Source of the DNA: a virus
IMG/VR virus record: IMGVR_UViG_3300032220_001761
Location: 126,675 to 190,674 of that record
Strand: one strand, 5' to 3'
DNA length: 64,000 nucleotides
Shown: positions 25,900 through 58,844 of the stretch, piece after piece
How the letters are laid out: every line of letters begins with the position of its first letter
Numbering within the stretch: position 1 is the stretch's first letter
Position numbers and translations under genes: made by a program
The notes under the pieces: generated by a model
Databases searched by the model: none
Seen by the model: the letters and a program-made list of their open reading frames with translations, nothing else
What the model was told of the DNA's origin: nothing

Positions 25900-25935
25900 A
25901 AATAAGAAAAATCTACAGAAGAAAAAATTATTCCT
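25894..25935 (-). promoter_or_regulatory. Bacteroidota-type promoter (copy 9)
   Basis: Minus strand contains TGTAGATTTTTCTTATTTTTGTTC; TATTTTTG is an exact TAnnTTTG. Overlaps the 3' end of mgtC. Confidence 0.55.
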
Positions 25936-26368
25936 GCTTTTTTTTAGTTACGAGCTTTTCGACACGCTCAAGTAAAATGGAAACAACAACCAGTCCTATT
26001 GTTAAAATGATTGGCTCTCTAATGTATCCCAATCCTGACATGATACCCATCGAACTTGCTATCCACACAAAAGCTGCTGTTGTGATCCCATGGATTTTGT
26101 CGTCGTTCTTTAATATAGTTCCTCCACCTAAAAAACCTATCCCAGTTATGATCTGTCCTATTATTCTTGTTGGATCAACACCAGCAGAACTAATAGAAAT
26201 ATCTTTAGAGACCCATGTTAGAATAGAGCATCCAACAGATATTAAAATCATAGATCTTATACCCGCTGGTTTTTTCTTTATCTCTCTTTCAACCCCAATA
26301 ATAAATGCACAAATAGTTGAAGTTATTACTCCGTACCAAAGATCCTGGTGTATAAAAATTTCATTCAT
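25928..26368 (-). CDS. mgtC: MgtC/SapB family inner-membrane protein
   Basis: 146 residues, about four TM helices. The MgtC hallmarks are clear: an early GVEREIKKKPAGIRS segment, ILISVGCSILTWVS, then RIIGQIITGIGFLGGGTILK and TTAAFVWIASSMGIMSGLG. In bacteria MgtC supports growth in low magnesium and survival in macrophages, partly by restraining ATP synthase. Only the MgtC core is present, without the longer cytoplasmic tail. Its presence on a phage suggests control of host membrane energetics or magnesium. Confidence 0.88.
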   Translation of the reverse strand: MNEIFIHQDLWYGVITSTICAFIIGVEREIKKKPAGIRSMILISVGCSILTWVSKDISISSAGVDPTRIIGQIITGIGFLGGGTILKNDDKIHGITTAAFVWIASSMGIMSGLGYIREPIILTIGLVVVSILLERVEKLVTKKKQE

Positions 26369-26390: not shown

Positions 26391-26417
26391 AAAAAACCCG
26401 TCTTAAGTGACGGGTTT
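26391..26417 (-). terminator. Terminator of tmRNA gene
   Basis: On the minus strand AACCCGTC-ACTTAA-GACGGGTT and T8, 5 bp after the encoded CCA end of the tmRNA. Confidence 0.85.
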
Positions 26418-26421
26418 AATC

Positions 26422-26905
26422 TGGTGGACCATGTGGGATTCGAACCCACGTCTTGCTCAATAAGTTAAATGCGCTCATTCACAGGCTTAGATCCGGTTTA
26501 TCAGACTCCGGTCAAACTGTGTAGCTATCTTTTTTTGGACTGGCTTTAGCTTCAGCCAGCGAACCTACACTATCAGCGCTCCTTGGATTTCTCCGTGGAC
26601 TGTTGCCTTTCGACTCAGGGGCTCTGGTGGTTTTCTATTGTGAGGTACTGTAGCCCCTTTTTCCCTCGGTTTTCAAATTTCTGTTCCTAGGTAATTGAGA
26701 CCCGGTGGTTAAGCTGCTAATAGCATCTCTACCTCATCCATCACTGAAGCATTAGCTACAGATCCAGATTCCATGATGTTCATCACATCAAGGACATTAT
26801 AAACGTTGCCGTTTGTGATTTTAATAGGGGATTTAAGTGTTTCCATCTAACACTGCCTGTATCACGTCAAAGAACTTTCATTGCCAATCAATTCCGATAT
26901 GGCCC
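26422..26905 (-). ncRNA. ssrA: tmRNA (transfer-messenger RNA)
   Basis: 484 nt. The ends form an alanyl acceptor: GGGCCAT pairs with ATGGTCC, giving the G3-U70 wobble that identifies alanine tRNA, with discriminator A and encoded CCA. The T-arm is GTGGG-TTCGAAT-CCCAC. The 5' part GGAATTGATTGGCA resembles the tmRNA D-loop. An internal frame after GTAGCT reads (A)NASVMDEVEMLLAA and stops at TAA (26709-26711), giving a proteolysis tag ending in LAA. Downstream of the tag lie several hairpins, including CTGGCTGAAGCTAAAGCCAG, consistent with the pseudoknot series. It begins 16 bp after the ClpP-like gene. Confidence 0.92.
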
Positions 26906-26920
26906 ATTTATTATATATAC

Positions 26921-27652
26921 TCAGCTTCCGCGAAAAATTTCATCCGCCAAGCCTAAAGAAACAGTTTCTTCTGGAGTAAGGATAGTATCAAAATTAAGTA
27001 GCTCTTTTAAAACTCCCCTAATCTCTTCTCTTCTTGCTGGGATACTTCTAGAAAATTTATAATTAACATCAGCAGGTTTTGGATGCTCCAGTGCTTTCTG
27101 TTTATTCATGATTGAGCTTAGTACCTTAGCCATATACCCTGTTCCCTCCTCTTCTTCCTTTTCCATCATCATATCAAGGTAAATATTCTCCATGTCATAG
27201 TTAATCCTTTTACCCTCATCAGACCATTTTTCAAATATCTTAGTGTGACCAATATTTCCGTTGTATCCGTAATGAATCATGAATCTACTATTGGGCATCA
27301 TTATCCTGTGGTCTGCAGATTGTAATATGATACTTCCCATACTCATCGCATGTCCATAAACCTTAATAGTGCAGTGGCAGTTTGAGTTTTTAATCGCATC
27401 ATAAATAGCCATTCCATGGTACCAATCTCCTCCTGGGTTATTCATGATTACAAAGATCTCTTTATCCGCTCCTCTAGATTCTAGAAGGTGCATTCCCTTT
27501 ATAAAATATTCAGTCATTAAATGATCTACACCAGTTTCTCCCCCGTCGTAATTGTATCCCAAACTACCCATGTAGATCGTCCTTGTTTCAAGATCTAGGT
27601 TATGATCGAACCAAGTCCATACAAAATCGTTGTCTCTAATTCTTTTAGCCAT
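26921..27652 (-). CDS. ClpP-like serine protease
   Basis: 243 residues. The ClpP fold motifs are present: IFVIMNNPGGDWYHGMAIYD, GHAMSMGSIILQSAD with catalytic Ser104, SRFMIHYG with His127, and NFDTILTPEETVSLGLADEI, in which Asp222 aligns with the ClpP catalytic Asp. It would degrade unfolded peptides, normally with a ClpX/ClpA ATPase; none is seen here, so the host ATPase is a likely partner. Phage ClpP relatives can also be prohead proteases. The tmRNA directly downstream favours a role in degrading tagged products. Confidence 0.82.
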   Translation of the reverse strand: MAKRIRDNDFVWTWFDHNLDLETRTIYMGSLGYNYDGGETGVDHLMTEYFIKGMHLLESRGADKEIFVIMNNPGGDWYHGMAIYDAIKNSNCHCTIKVYGHAMSMGSIILQSADHRIMMPNSRFMIHYGYNGNIGHTKIFEKWSDEGKRINYDMENIYLDMMMEKEEEEGTGYMAKVLSSIMNKQKALEHPKPADVNYKFSRSIPARREEIRGVLKELLNFDTILTPEETVSLGLADEIFRGS

Positions 27653-33756: not shown

Positions 33757-34881
33757 TTAGTCTAAATTTACTTCTATATCTCCGTTAGGGTAAATATTGG
33801 TTACAGTTCCTTGTCCTTTATTTGTCATTACCTTATCTCCAACCACAACTTTTATAGTTTGTTTTTCATCTGGTTCTCCTGGTTCTCCCGGTTCTCCTGG
33901 TTCTCCCGGTTCTCCTGGTTCTCCCGGTTCTCCTGGTTCTCCCGGTTCTCCTGGTTCTCCCGGTTCTCCCGGTTCGCCTGGTTCTCCTGGTTCTCCTGGT
34001 TCTCCTGGTTCTCCTGGTTCACCTGGTTCACCTGGTTCTACATCACCAGTTTGTCCACCTGTTGGTCCATCACCAGTTGCACCACCTGTCTGTCCGCCTG
34101 TTGGGCCATCAACATCACCTGTCTGTCCACCGGTTGGTCCATCATCTGTCTGTCCTCCCGTTTCGCCGCCACCGGTTGGTCCATCTTCTTTTGAATCTGG
34201 ATCTTGATCAGTCTCTTTGTTATCATAATCTTCTTCAGATTTTTGATAATCCTCGTCACCTTGTAAATAAACGATAAGCTCTGGATCTGGGTTTGGGATA
34301 GGATCAGTATAATCTATTACAAATCCTGTATCAGCCTGATTTATATTATTATTACTTCCCCTTGATTGCATAAGAATTTCGTAGATATCCTCAACTCTCG
34401 TACCTTCTAGCTGTTTATCATATATAAAAGCTTTCTCCCCAGATTTAGTAATAGGAGGTTCTATTCCATCCTCATCTTTGAGCATTGGATTTATAGCGTA
34501 GTCACAAGCTATATTCCACATTTTTATATCTCGGTTTTCTCTCTTATCGTAATGCTCGCTAATGCAATGTAATATCTCGTGCATTATAGCAAACCTTAAA
34601 GCTTTATCACTTTGATTAATTACAAAATCTGGATGGAAAATTATATCTCTTCCGTTTGTTGTAATAGTATTAGGTTCAAGATCGTAAGATCCCCAAAGAT
34701 TTATGTGGCTTAGAAGTTCACCATAGAATCCCTTATTGATTGATAGCCATAGAGTTGCTCTATTTATTTTTTTAACTACCTCTTGAGCATTATATGATTG
34801 TGACTCGTTAAGATATCCTACGAAATTAGAAAAAGATGTTATGACCTTTCCTGATTTATATTTAGATTCAATAATTTTCAT
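33757..34881 (-). CDS. Metallopeptidase-like DUF2201 N-terminal protein with collagen-like run
   Basis: 374 residues. After the N-terminal signal ([20 protein letters not shown], cut possible at LNE-S) residues about 95-140 hold [19 protein letters not shown] and [13 protein letters not shown], the HExxH and WN-x-A-x-D-x-x-x-N motifs of the DUF2201 putative metallopeptidase domain. Residues about 230-345 are GPTGGQTGD repeats, then about 18 GEP triplets. The C-terminus ([20 protein letters not shown]) is a small barrel. It joins MoxR (overlap of 1 nt) and VWA genes. Confidence 0.8.
33872..34040 (-). repeat. 9-nt coding repeat giving a collagen-like GEP run
   Basis: About 18 units of GGTTCTCC(T/C) on the plus strand, encoding Gly-Glu-Pro triplets on the minus strand. 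The alternation of T and C at the ninth base suggests that the copy unit was often 18 nt. The run is prone to length change. Confidence 0.9.
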
Positions 34882-57942: not shown

Positions 57943-58473
57943 TTATTTGGGTTGATTCTTCTTGCTATTTGTAACGAATGTTTTAAAATCCATCAACGAA
58001 ATATCCAAAGGGTTTGGAGTTCTAACAGTTGTAGTTTTTTCAACAGATCCGGTAGTTCCAGCAAAGTCAGTCATTTTCTTTTTCTTCTTTCCTTTCGCTG
58101 CTGGTGTTCCAACTGAAAGGGAAGGAAATTGATCACCTGATCCCTCTTTCCCAGGAGTAGGTGGAACTACGTTTCCCATACCGGGAGTTGACGGAAGACT
58201 AGCAAGTGCTCCGCCACTCTCACTTAGAACGTCAGAGATCTTATTTTTAAATACTCTATAAGATCCTCTATCCCCTTCTATAACATACCCAATCACCTCT
58301 CCTGTGTTATTTCTGATTGAATCATCAACCATTCCACTTCTACCGTCAACTAAAGAAACTCTTTTGCCAACTAAAGGATCCTGTGAGTATCTAGGGGTGC
58401 TTGATCCAGCATAACTTCTGATGTTGTCTGTAGTAGATCCACATCCGCAATCTTCGTTTAATTCTTCTTTCAT
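57943..58473 (-). CDS. Hypothetical protein with C-terminal signal-like segment
   Basis: 176 residues. An N-terminal MKEELNEDCGCGSTT, a beta-type segment (VGKRVSLVDGRSGMVDDSI), then a Pro/Gly/Ser-rich linker. The C-terminus ISLMDFKTFVTNSKKNQ looks like the capsid-targeting pattern (F-x-x-F-V-x-x-S) but placed at the end. Function unknown. Paired with the next gene, 5 bp apart. Confidence 0.58.
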   Translation of the reverse strand: MKEELNEDCGCGSTTDNIRSYAGSSTPRYSQDPLVGKRVSLVDGRSGMVDDSIRNNTGEVIGYVIEGDRGSYRVFKNKISDVLSESGGALASLPSTPGMGNVVPPTPGKEGSGDQFPSLSVGTPAAKGKKKKKMTDFAGTTGSVEKTTTVRTPNPLDISLMDFKTFVTNSKKNQPK

Positions 58474-58478
58474 AATGA

Positions 58479-58844
58479 TTATTTATTTTTTCTTGAAGTA
58501 AATTCTCTATAGTCAGCTAGGTTTTGCATTTTAGCTGAGGGTGATTTTTTACTTGGTTTATTTGATTCTGGTTTAAGGTATGTATAAATGGTAGGAACTT
58601 CTTCTTCTCCCATGTAATCCTCCTTCACCTCTGGTAATTTTTTATGCTTTGTAGATGCGTATGCTTTTAAGGATTTCTTTTTATCCCATTCTTTAGCCAT
58701 ACTAACTATCTTATCTCTGTATTCAGGATTAACATCCTTAGGATCTAACCCCTCTTTACCGTCAGAGTCCATAAATTTACGAACTCCGTAAACCTGACCC
58801 ATTAATCTTTGTTGACTTTTAGAAACCGATTTTTCGTTAATCAT
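58479..58844 (-). CDS. Hypothetical protein (DUF3008-like start)
   Basis: 121 residues. VSKSQQRLMGQVYGVRKFM resembles the DUF3008-type motif (SKSQQRLMG) of small virion-associated phage proteins. Lys-rich. The C-terminus LADYREFTSRKNK also resembles a terminal F-containing signal, as in the gene after it. Overlaps the endonuclease gene by 4 nt. Confidence 0.62.
   Translation of the reverse strand: MINEKSVSKSQQRLMGQVYGVRKFMDSDGKEGLDPKDVNPEYRDKIVSMAKEWDKKKSLKAYASTKHKKLPEVKEDYMGEEEVPTIYTYLKPESNKPSKKSPSAKMQNLADYREFTSRKNK

What the first reader, a model, noticed from the sequence alone, without database searches (positions are those of the whole stretch)
26391..27652. Phage-encoded tmRNA next to a ClpP-like protease
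Seen: a 484-nt tmRNA with a G3-U70 acceptor stem, CCA end and tag (A)NASVMDEVEMLLAA, 16 bp after a ClpP-like gene with Ser104/His127/Asp222, both on one strand and closed by a terminator. Known: tmRNA tags ending in LAA direct products to ClpXP. Inference: a self-contained ribosome-rescue and degradation unit, useful if host mRNA is cut during infection. The tag is longer than the usual ~10 residues and ends MLLAA instead of YALAA.
Basis: partly seen in the sequence, partly recalled or inferred. Interest (0 to 1): 0.9.

Follow-up and report, generated by a model that had tools for sequence, protein, structure and literature searches.

The report
Phage tmRNA with a lengthened tag
A large virus of (probably) Bacteroidota bacteria carries its own ribosome-rescue RNA (tmRNA) and, elsewhere in its genome, the partner protein SmpB; the peptide tag this RNA would add to stalled proteins is about 33 residues long, where the tags of related bacteria are 9-10, so the virus seems to have rewritten the label that marks proteins for destruction.

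Summary
The tmRNA is real: window 26422-26905 (-), Rfam RF00023, 41.4 bits, E 1.2e-14. Default ARAGORN and Rfam's curated cut-off (47 bits) miss it. In 22 distinct related phage tmRNAs the resume codon lies 25-27 nt after pseudoknot 1, with A-4, A-3 and G+1 invariant. Here it is GGC at 26810, giving (A)GNVYNVLDVMNIMESGSVANASVMDEVEMLLAA (33 codons). These phages have tags of 14-34 codons, under peptide-level selection where testable; 28 of 29 Bacteroidota chromosomal tags read here are 9-10. The same genome also encodes SmpB, 95 kb away, in a phage-only SmpB clade.

The 'tmRNA plus ClpP unit' is weakly supported. The adjacency occurs only in this phage and one close relative; 43 other records with this ClpP family lack SmpB. 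The protein has ClpP fold and triad but falls below curated ClpP and head-protease cut-offs. In larger relatives, however, tmRNA, SmpB and a ClpC-like unfoldase with a ClpP-docking motif are clustered, with ClpP often elsewhere in the record. Phage tmRNA and SmpB are already published; the lengthened, structured tag family is the new part. Function is inferred only.

The parts
26422..26905 (-). tmRNA (ssrA) gene, 484 nt
   Evidence: RF00023, 41.4 bits, E 1.2e-14, model 1-374 of 374; homologues in 30 viral loci
26899..26905 (-). acceptor stem 5' strand GGGCCAU
   Evidence: pairs with 26426-26432; G3-U70 in 22 of 22 distinct relatives, positions 4-7 with 3-4 pair types each
26426..26432 (-). acceptor stem 3' strand AUGGUCC
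26422..26425 (-). discriminator A and encoded CCA
   Evidence: only 5 of the 22 tmRNAs compared encode ACCA
26433..26449 (-). T arm GUGGG-UUCGAAU-CCCAC
   Evidence: compensatory changes in relatives
26855..26860 (-). H2 helix 5' strand ACAGGC
   Evidence: pairs with GCCUGU at 26481-26486; 4 pair types at one position across relatives
26481..26486 (-). H2 helix 3' strand GCCUGU
26836..26854 (-). pseudoknot 1, stem 1 (AGUGUU/AACACU)
   Evidence: A-U to C-G compensatory change at the outer pair in relatives
26712..26810 (-). tag reading frame, 33 codons from resume codon GGC (26808-26810); stop UAA 26709-26711
   Evidence: resume position conserved, A-4, A-3 and G+1 invariant in 22 of 22; same start chosen by ARAGORN at relaxed threshold; frame kept through a 6-nt indel in L125; peptide-level selection in relatives
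26770..26794 (-). first hairpin inside the tag reading frame (UGAUGU-gauga-ACAUCA)
   Evidence: same place in L124 as GAGGAUAU-gauga-GUAUCCUC
26736..26769 (-). second hairpin inside the tag reading frame (weaker in this copy)
26673..26703 (-). pseudoknot 2 (GGGU/ACCU with UCAAUU/AAUUUGA)
   Evidence: read by eye; counterpart stems with changed letters in L150, L126, L128; not counted formally
26921..27652 (-). ClpP-like serine protease, 243 aa, S104/H127/D222
   Evidence: PF00574 90.9 bits; predicted fold matches solved ClpP, TM about 0.8 by target; below curated ClpP cut-offs
26394..26417 (-). intrinsic terminator after the tmRNA

Best explanation
The locus is a working tmRNA gene of a large tailed phage of Bacteroidota, co-inherited with a phage SmpB gene elsewhere in the genome. 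During infection the phage tmRNA-SmpB would enter ribosomes stalled at the 3' ends of cut messages, donate alanine, switch translation to codon GGC at 26810, and add a 34-residue tag (one charged Ala plus 33 encoded). The C-terminal end (MLLAA) would deliver the product to a Clp protease, most simply the host's own ClpXP. The added N-terminal segment of the tag, absent from bacterial tags, is a conserved peptide and so has a job of its own; the most likely one is extra contact or reach for a protease or adaptor. Shown: the RNA, its covarying helices, the resume position, the tag length and its selection in relatives, SmpB in the same record. Inferred: expression, tagging, the protease, and the role of the extension. 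The ClpP-like neighbour is at most a loosely linked accessory.
For: RF00023 full-length match. 22 distinct tmRNAs: acceptor, T arm, H2 and PK1 stem 1 fully paired with compensatory changes, G3-U70 in all. Resume context invariant. Tags of 14-34 codons in 24 unique phage tags against 9-10 in 28 of 29 Bacteroidota chromosomal tags, the exception being a likely ARAGORN miscall. Tag frame under purifying selection: pN/pS 0.27 in frame against 1.69 and 4.51 out of frame in ten 23-codon tags; 0.25 against 3.77 and 0.53 in a 32-codon pair; variable columns by codon position 8, 7, 18. SmpB in G000 above the NCBIfam equivalog cut-off, 154.5 against 119.1. Phage SmpBs of this type form one clade, 14 tips, support 0.94, apart from 80 cellular sequences, mostly Bacteroidota.
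Against: No expression data. This copy scores below Rfam's cut-off. The record is of unknown completeness and the host is inferred. The G000/L125 pair alone gives few substitutions, so selection on this particular tag is inferred from related groups; in the 25-codon group the frame test was not informative (0.52 in frame, 0.38 and 0.85 out of frame). PK3 and PK4 were not resolved. The acceptor and T arm of relatives were located partly by pairing, although the coordinates agree with Rfam for the five checked.
Confidence: 0.72

Rival explanations
1. Self-contained unit: the adjacent ClpP-like protein, with a host unfoldase, is the dedicated protease for proteins tagged by this tmRNA.
For: 15-nt spacing, same strand, common terminator, and the same order in G001; intact triad and ClpP fold; other SmpB-bearing phages carry ClpP and a ClpC-like ATPase with a GVGF/GMGF motif.
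Against: Adjacency limited to one lineage; tmRNA and this ClpP family mostly occur apart. No ClpX/ClpC-type ATPase found in G000. The protein is below curated ClpP cut-offs and a long insertion lies in the region before Asp222.
Confidence: 0.2
2. The ClpP-like gene is a virion (head maturation) protease or has another unrelated role, and lies next to the tmRNA by chance.
For: Best PHROG and NCBIfam matches are ClpP-related head maturation proteases; tmRNA and the gene are uncoupled in most relatives.
Against: 83.5 bits, below the 120-bit cut-off of that family; an S77 (gp21-like) prohead protease match exists at G000:4107-4451 (weak, 28.9 bits) and the Gp23-like capsid gene is near 34.5-35.5 kb, far from the ClpP-like gene at 153.8 kb.
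Confidence: 0.35
3. The long tag does not serve degradation: it diverts or stabilises tagged proteins, or acts as a regulatory peptide, and only ribosome release matters.
For: C-termini vary (LLAA, AVAA, AYAA, VTA, VGA, NVA), and release rather than degradation is what cells need (review, PMC8012679). Hairpins inside the frame in 31-34-codon tags suggest constraints other than a short degron.
Against: Almost all tags still end in a small hydrophobic residue pattern close to that of bacterial degrons.
Confidence: 0.25
4. A passenger copy of a host ssrA gene (integration-site remnant) without function.
For: Prophages can insert in ssrA and carry fragments of it (cited in PMC9004378).
Against: Compensatory changes, tag selection, phage-only SmpB clade, and no match of the 5' pattern in 84,980 GTDB species genomes.
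Confidence: 0.03

Closest known systems
Bacteroidota chromosomal tmRNA (ssrA)
   Same: tmRNA with the same kind of resume codon and first residues (GN/GE) and a C-terminal AA
   Different: Tag 9-10 codons in 28 of 29 read here, against 14-34 in the phages; no room for hairpins in the short frame
Phage tmRNAs already described (mycobacteriophages Bxz1 and others, Bacillus phage G; PMC4131195; 402 of 18,146 phage genomes in PMC9004378; Cellulophaga phage Calle, PMC8776804)
   Same: A complete tmRNA gene on a phage genome; Calle_1 has a 22-codon tag by ARAGORN
   Different: The passages read here do not discuss lengthened or structured tags; this copy and several relatives are missed by default ARAGORN
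Huge-phage translation genes including tmRNA and SmpB (PMC7162821)
   Same: Phage tmRNA and phage SmpB reported
   Different: That paper's main text does not mention ClpP; here tag expansion, a ClpC-like/tmRNA/SmpB cluster in related phages, and a phage SmpB clade are added
Long tmRNA tags of Mycoplasma-type bacteria (own knowledge; published range 8-35 residues, PMC8012679)
   Same: Tags of more than 25 residues
   Different: There the change is thought to go with loss of ClpXP and use of Lon (own knowledge); here the C-terminus stays Clp-like and an insert is added in front
ClpP-related head maturation proteases (NF045542, phrog_94)
   Same: Fold and triad region; best family score
   Different: Below the family cut-off; not beside the capsid gene

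Membership tests
tmRNA (RF00023) | alanine-type acceptor stem with G3-U70 and T arm | tested here: met
   22 of 22 including this one
tmRNA (RF00023) | H2 helix and pseudoknot 1 | tested here: met
   compensatory changes at H2 pairs 4 and 6 and PK1 stem 1 pair 1; PK1 stem 2 only read by eye
tmRNA (RF00023) | pseudoknots 2 to 4 | tested here: inconclusive
   PK2 readable with changed stems in relatives; PK3 and PK4 not resolved
tmRNA (RF00023) | resume codon downstream of PK1 and in-frame tag with stop | tested here: met
tmRNA (RF00023) | score above curated gathering cut-off | tested here: not met
   41.4 against 47 bits; the closest relative reaches 51.4. A detection threshold, not a structural feature
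tmRNA (RF00023) | SmpB partner available | tested here: met
   G000:58134-58535, 151.5 bits; NCBIfam equivalog met
tmRNA (RF00023) | alanine charging and trans-translation | not testable with these tools
   needs bench work
ClpP (proteolytic subunit) | Ser-His-Asp triad and ClpP fold | tested here: met
   S104/H127/D222; AlphaFold pLDDT 89.3 and Foldseek matches to ClpP
ClpP (proteolytic subunit) | curated ClpP equivalog score | tested here: not met
   TIGR00493 55.6 against 308.6 bits
ClpP (proteolytic subunit) | double heptamer and docking to a Clp ATPase | not testable with these tools
   needs purified protein
ClpP-related head maturation protease | curated family score | tested here: not met
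   NF045542 83.5 against 120 bits
ClpP-related head maturation protease | place beside capsid genes | tested here: not met
   Gp23-like gene at about 34.5-35.5 kb, ClpP-like at 153.8 kb of the record

The most novel reading that the evidence does not exclude
Large Bacteroidota phages carry their own trans-translation system with a reprogrammed, two-part tag: a conserved phage-specific recognition segment in front of a Clp-type degron. In some of them a linked ClpC-like unfoldase and a phage ClpP complete the route from stalled ribosome to amino acids, so the phage runs its own protein quality control in the infected cell.
Probability: 0.35. Interest if true: 0.82.

Novelty: new variant of a known kind. 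Interest (0 to 1): 0.62.

Why it matters
Phage tmRNAs have been counted but seldom explained. Tags that stay under peptide selection yet are up to four times as long as the hosts' tags give a direct handle: change the tag and see which protease or adaptor reads it. It also tells annotators that default ARAGORN and Rfam settings miss some tmRNAs of this kind, and that PHROG 6791, listed as unknown function, matches SmpB.

Tried and rejected
Rejected: ARAGORN's permuted reading of the tmRNA and its other low-threshold alternatives; only its tag start agrees with comparative evidence. Considered and dropped: a tag in the +1 frame starting GCA (ATFIMSLM, stop in a hairpin loop), because the other frame is the one conserved across relatives. 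Led nowhere: DNA search of INPHARED with the locus and with L124, no match; protein search of INPHARED with the ClpP-like protein found only distant matches under 60% identity, with staphylococcal head proteases at the top of the list; exact pattern in GTDB genomes, 0 hits; promoter scan, no excess over shuffles. A tmRNA covariance model of our own was not built (length limit of calibration).

Full report
Setting. The window is the last 64 kb of a 190,674-base IMG/VR virus record, G000. The record has a Gp23-like capsid gene, tail-spike and virion structural matches and a phage topoisomerase II large subunit, and a weak S77 prohead protease match, so it is a large T4-type tailed phage. Its SmpB is closest among cellular genomes to Bacteroidota sequences, and the cultured phages with matching tmRNA 3' ends infect Cellulophaga and Chryseobacterium or are crAss-like, with one doubtful Myxococcus phage match. 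Bacteroidota is therefore the likely host phylum, by inference.

The tmRNA. Infernal matches RF00023 end to end at 26422-26905 on the minus strand with 41.4 bits and E 1.2e-14. Default ARAGORN and the gathering threshold miss it. The nearest relative, G001, has the same order, ClpP-like gene then tmRNA, and passes the cut-off at 51.4 bits. Between the two, acceptor letters at positions 4, 6 and 7 and two T-arm pairs change together on both sides. A 24-letter pattern from the 5' domain found 30 viral loci, all tmRNAs. In 22 distinct ones the acceptor, T arm, H2 and PK1 stem 1 are fully paired, with up to four pair types per position, and none of 2,000 sequence shuffles reaches this. The acceptor and T arm were located partly by pairing, and the PK1 letters are partly in the search pattern, so those parts lean towards the result; the coordinates agree with Rfam for the five loci checked. 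A second pseudoknot after the stop codon can be read in several relatives with changed stems; PK3 and PK4 were not resolved.

The tag. Position -4 is A, -3 is A and +1 is G in all 22 sequences, at 25-27 nt after PK1 stem 1. For this copy that gives GGC at 26808-26810 and the tag GNVYNVLDVMNIMESGSVANASVMDEVEMLLAA. G001 reads GNVYNILDVMNIMESGISNEVSDEVEMLLAA.

Tag length. The 24 unique phage tags are 14 to 34 codons. Of 29 tags that ARAGORN read from 30 Bacteroidota chromosomal loci, 27 are 9 codons and one is 10, of the type GENNYALAA; one of 26 is probably a miscall, and one locus gave no call. The phage loci were chosen by their 5' domain, not by their tag. SmpB-bearing phages found independently also have tags of about 21-29 codons by my reading of the sequences, such as GNVLNKMSAVGLLRADEVAVA and GETIAKLSAVGLIRSEEVVTA. 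Published tags span 8-35 residues across species (PMC8012679), so the length is at the top of the known range, not beyond it.

Selection. In ten 23-codon tags pN/pS is 0.27 in the tag frame and 1.69 and 4.51 in the other two; in one 32-codon pair it is 0.25, 3.77 and 0.53. Variable columns by codon position are 8, 7 and 18, and the third-position excess holds in both halves of the tag. Pairs in these sums share ancestry, so they are not independent. The 25-codon group was not informative (0.52, 0.38, 0.85). In most 31-34-codon tags the reading frame also folds into two hairpins, the first with a similar loop and exchanged stem letters; folding z-scores for those tags range from -4.2 to -1.0, and this copy is -1.3, so the hairpins are suggestive here and stronger in relatives.

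SmpB. The same record encodes SmpB at 58134-58535, above the NCBIfam equivalog cut-off. In a tree with 80 cellular SmpBs the G000 protein falls in a clade of 14 phage sequences with support 0.94, which argues against a recent host gene. Four other tmRNA records of the 12 searched besides G000 also have SmpB, and 17 of 27 SmpB-bearing records have a tmRNA over the cut-off; one of those, G101, may be a prophage with host flank.

The ClpP-like neighbour. The 243-residue protein has S104, H127 and D222 conserved with its relatives and a confidently predicted ClpP fold. It scores 55.6 against a 308.6-bit cut-off for ClpP and 83.5 against 120 for ClpP-related head protease, so it is filed under neither. 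Adjacency to tmRNA is seen in G000 and G001 only. In G002 and G005 the tmRNA is about 16 and 40 kb away. Of 27 other pattern-found tmRNA records 3 have a distant ClpP-like hit, and SmpB is absent from all 43 records of this ClpP family searched. Many records are fragments, so absences count weakly. G000 has a second ClpP-like gene at 70941-71390 and no detectable ClpX or ClpC-type ATPase.

Wider picture. In other SmpB-bearing phages the rescue genes and Clp genes do travel together: ClpP in 14 of 32 such records, G000 included, and an AAA_2 ATPase of 670-830 residues in 16 of the 22 SmpB-bearing records searched. The six read from there (L316-L321) and the one in G061 have two Walker A motifs and a GVGF or GMGF motif where ClpC and ClpA dock ClpP (position from own knowledge). 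In G085, G079 and G098 the ClpC-like gene, a weakly M20/M42-like peptidase, a 350-450-residue protein, the tmRNA and smpB lie within about 10 kb. These phages are related to one another and should not be counted as independent.

Prior knowledge. Phage tmRNAs are known (PMC4131195, PMC9004378, PMC8776804), and tmRNA and SmpB in huge phages are reported in PMC7162821. I found no paper in the open library that discusses lengthened phage tags, but the library is incomplete.

Judgement. A real, probably working phage tmRNA with a mis-assigned tag, part of a family with expanded tags and, in this phage and some others, a phage SmpB: a new variant of a known kind. The ClpP link at this locus is weak.

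Noticed in passing
L322 (G085:56001-68000), L323 (G079:205001-219000), L324 (G098:17001-33000): Conserved neighbourhood: ClpC-like ATPase, weak M20/M42-like peptidase, a 350-450-residue protein, tmRNA and smpB within about 10 kb.
   Followed up: partly
L115:10938-11510 (G000, about 70.9-71.5 kb): A second ClpP-like gene in the same phage, 190 aa, PF00574 102 bits; closer to ClpP than the window copy but below ClpP cut-offs.
   Followed up: partly
L114:18122-18553: The phage SmpB gene; its best PHROG family, 6791, is labelled unknown function.
   Followed up: yes
L114:15527-18080: PAS/GAF-type sensor kinase (709 aa) and a response-regulator-like ORF beside smpB in G000.
   Followed up: no
L131, L143, L148, L142: tmRNAs with odd T arms: a UAUCGUAU loop in three copies, and an interrupted T arm in L142.
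   Followed up: no
L113:7364-19764: NAD-salvage genes (PRPP synthetase, nicotinamide phosphoribosyltransferase), SPFH protein, glycosyltransferase and methyltransferase genes around the capsid gene.
   Followed up: no
window 33757-34881: 374-aa ORF with a long GEP repeat, collagen-like.
   Followed up: no
window 25928-26368: MgtC-family membrane protein, next gene after the tmRNA terminator.
   Followed up: no
L152, L153, L155: Annotated phage tmRNAs in crAss-like and Chryseobacterium phages are called permuted by ARAGORN, with 13-17-residue tags.
   Followed up: no
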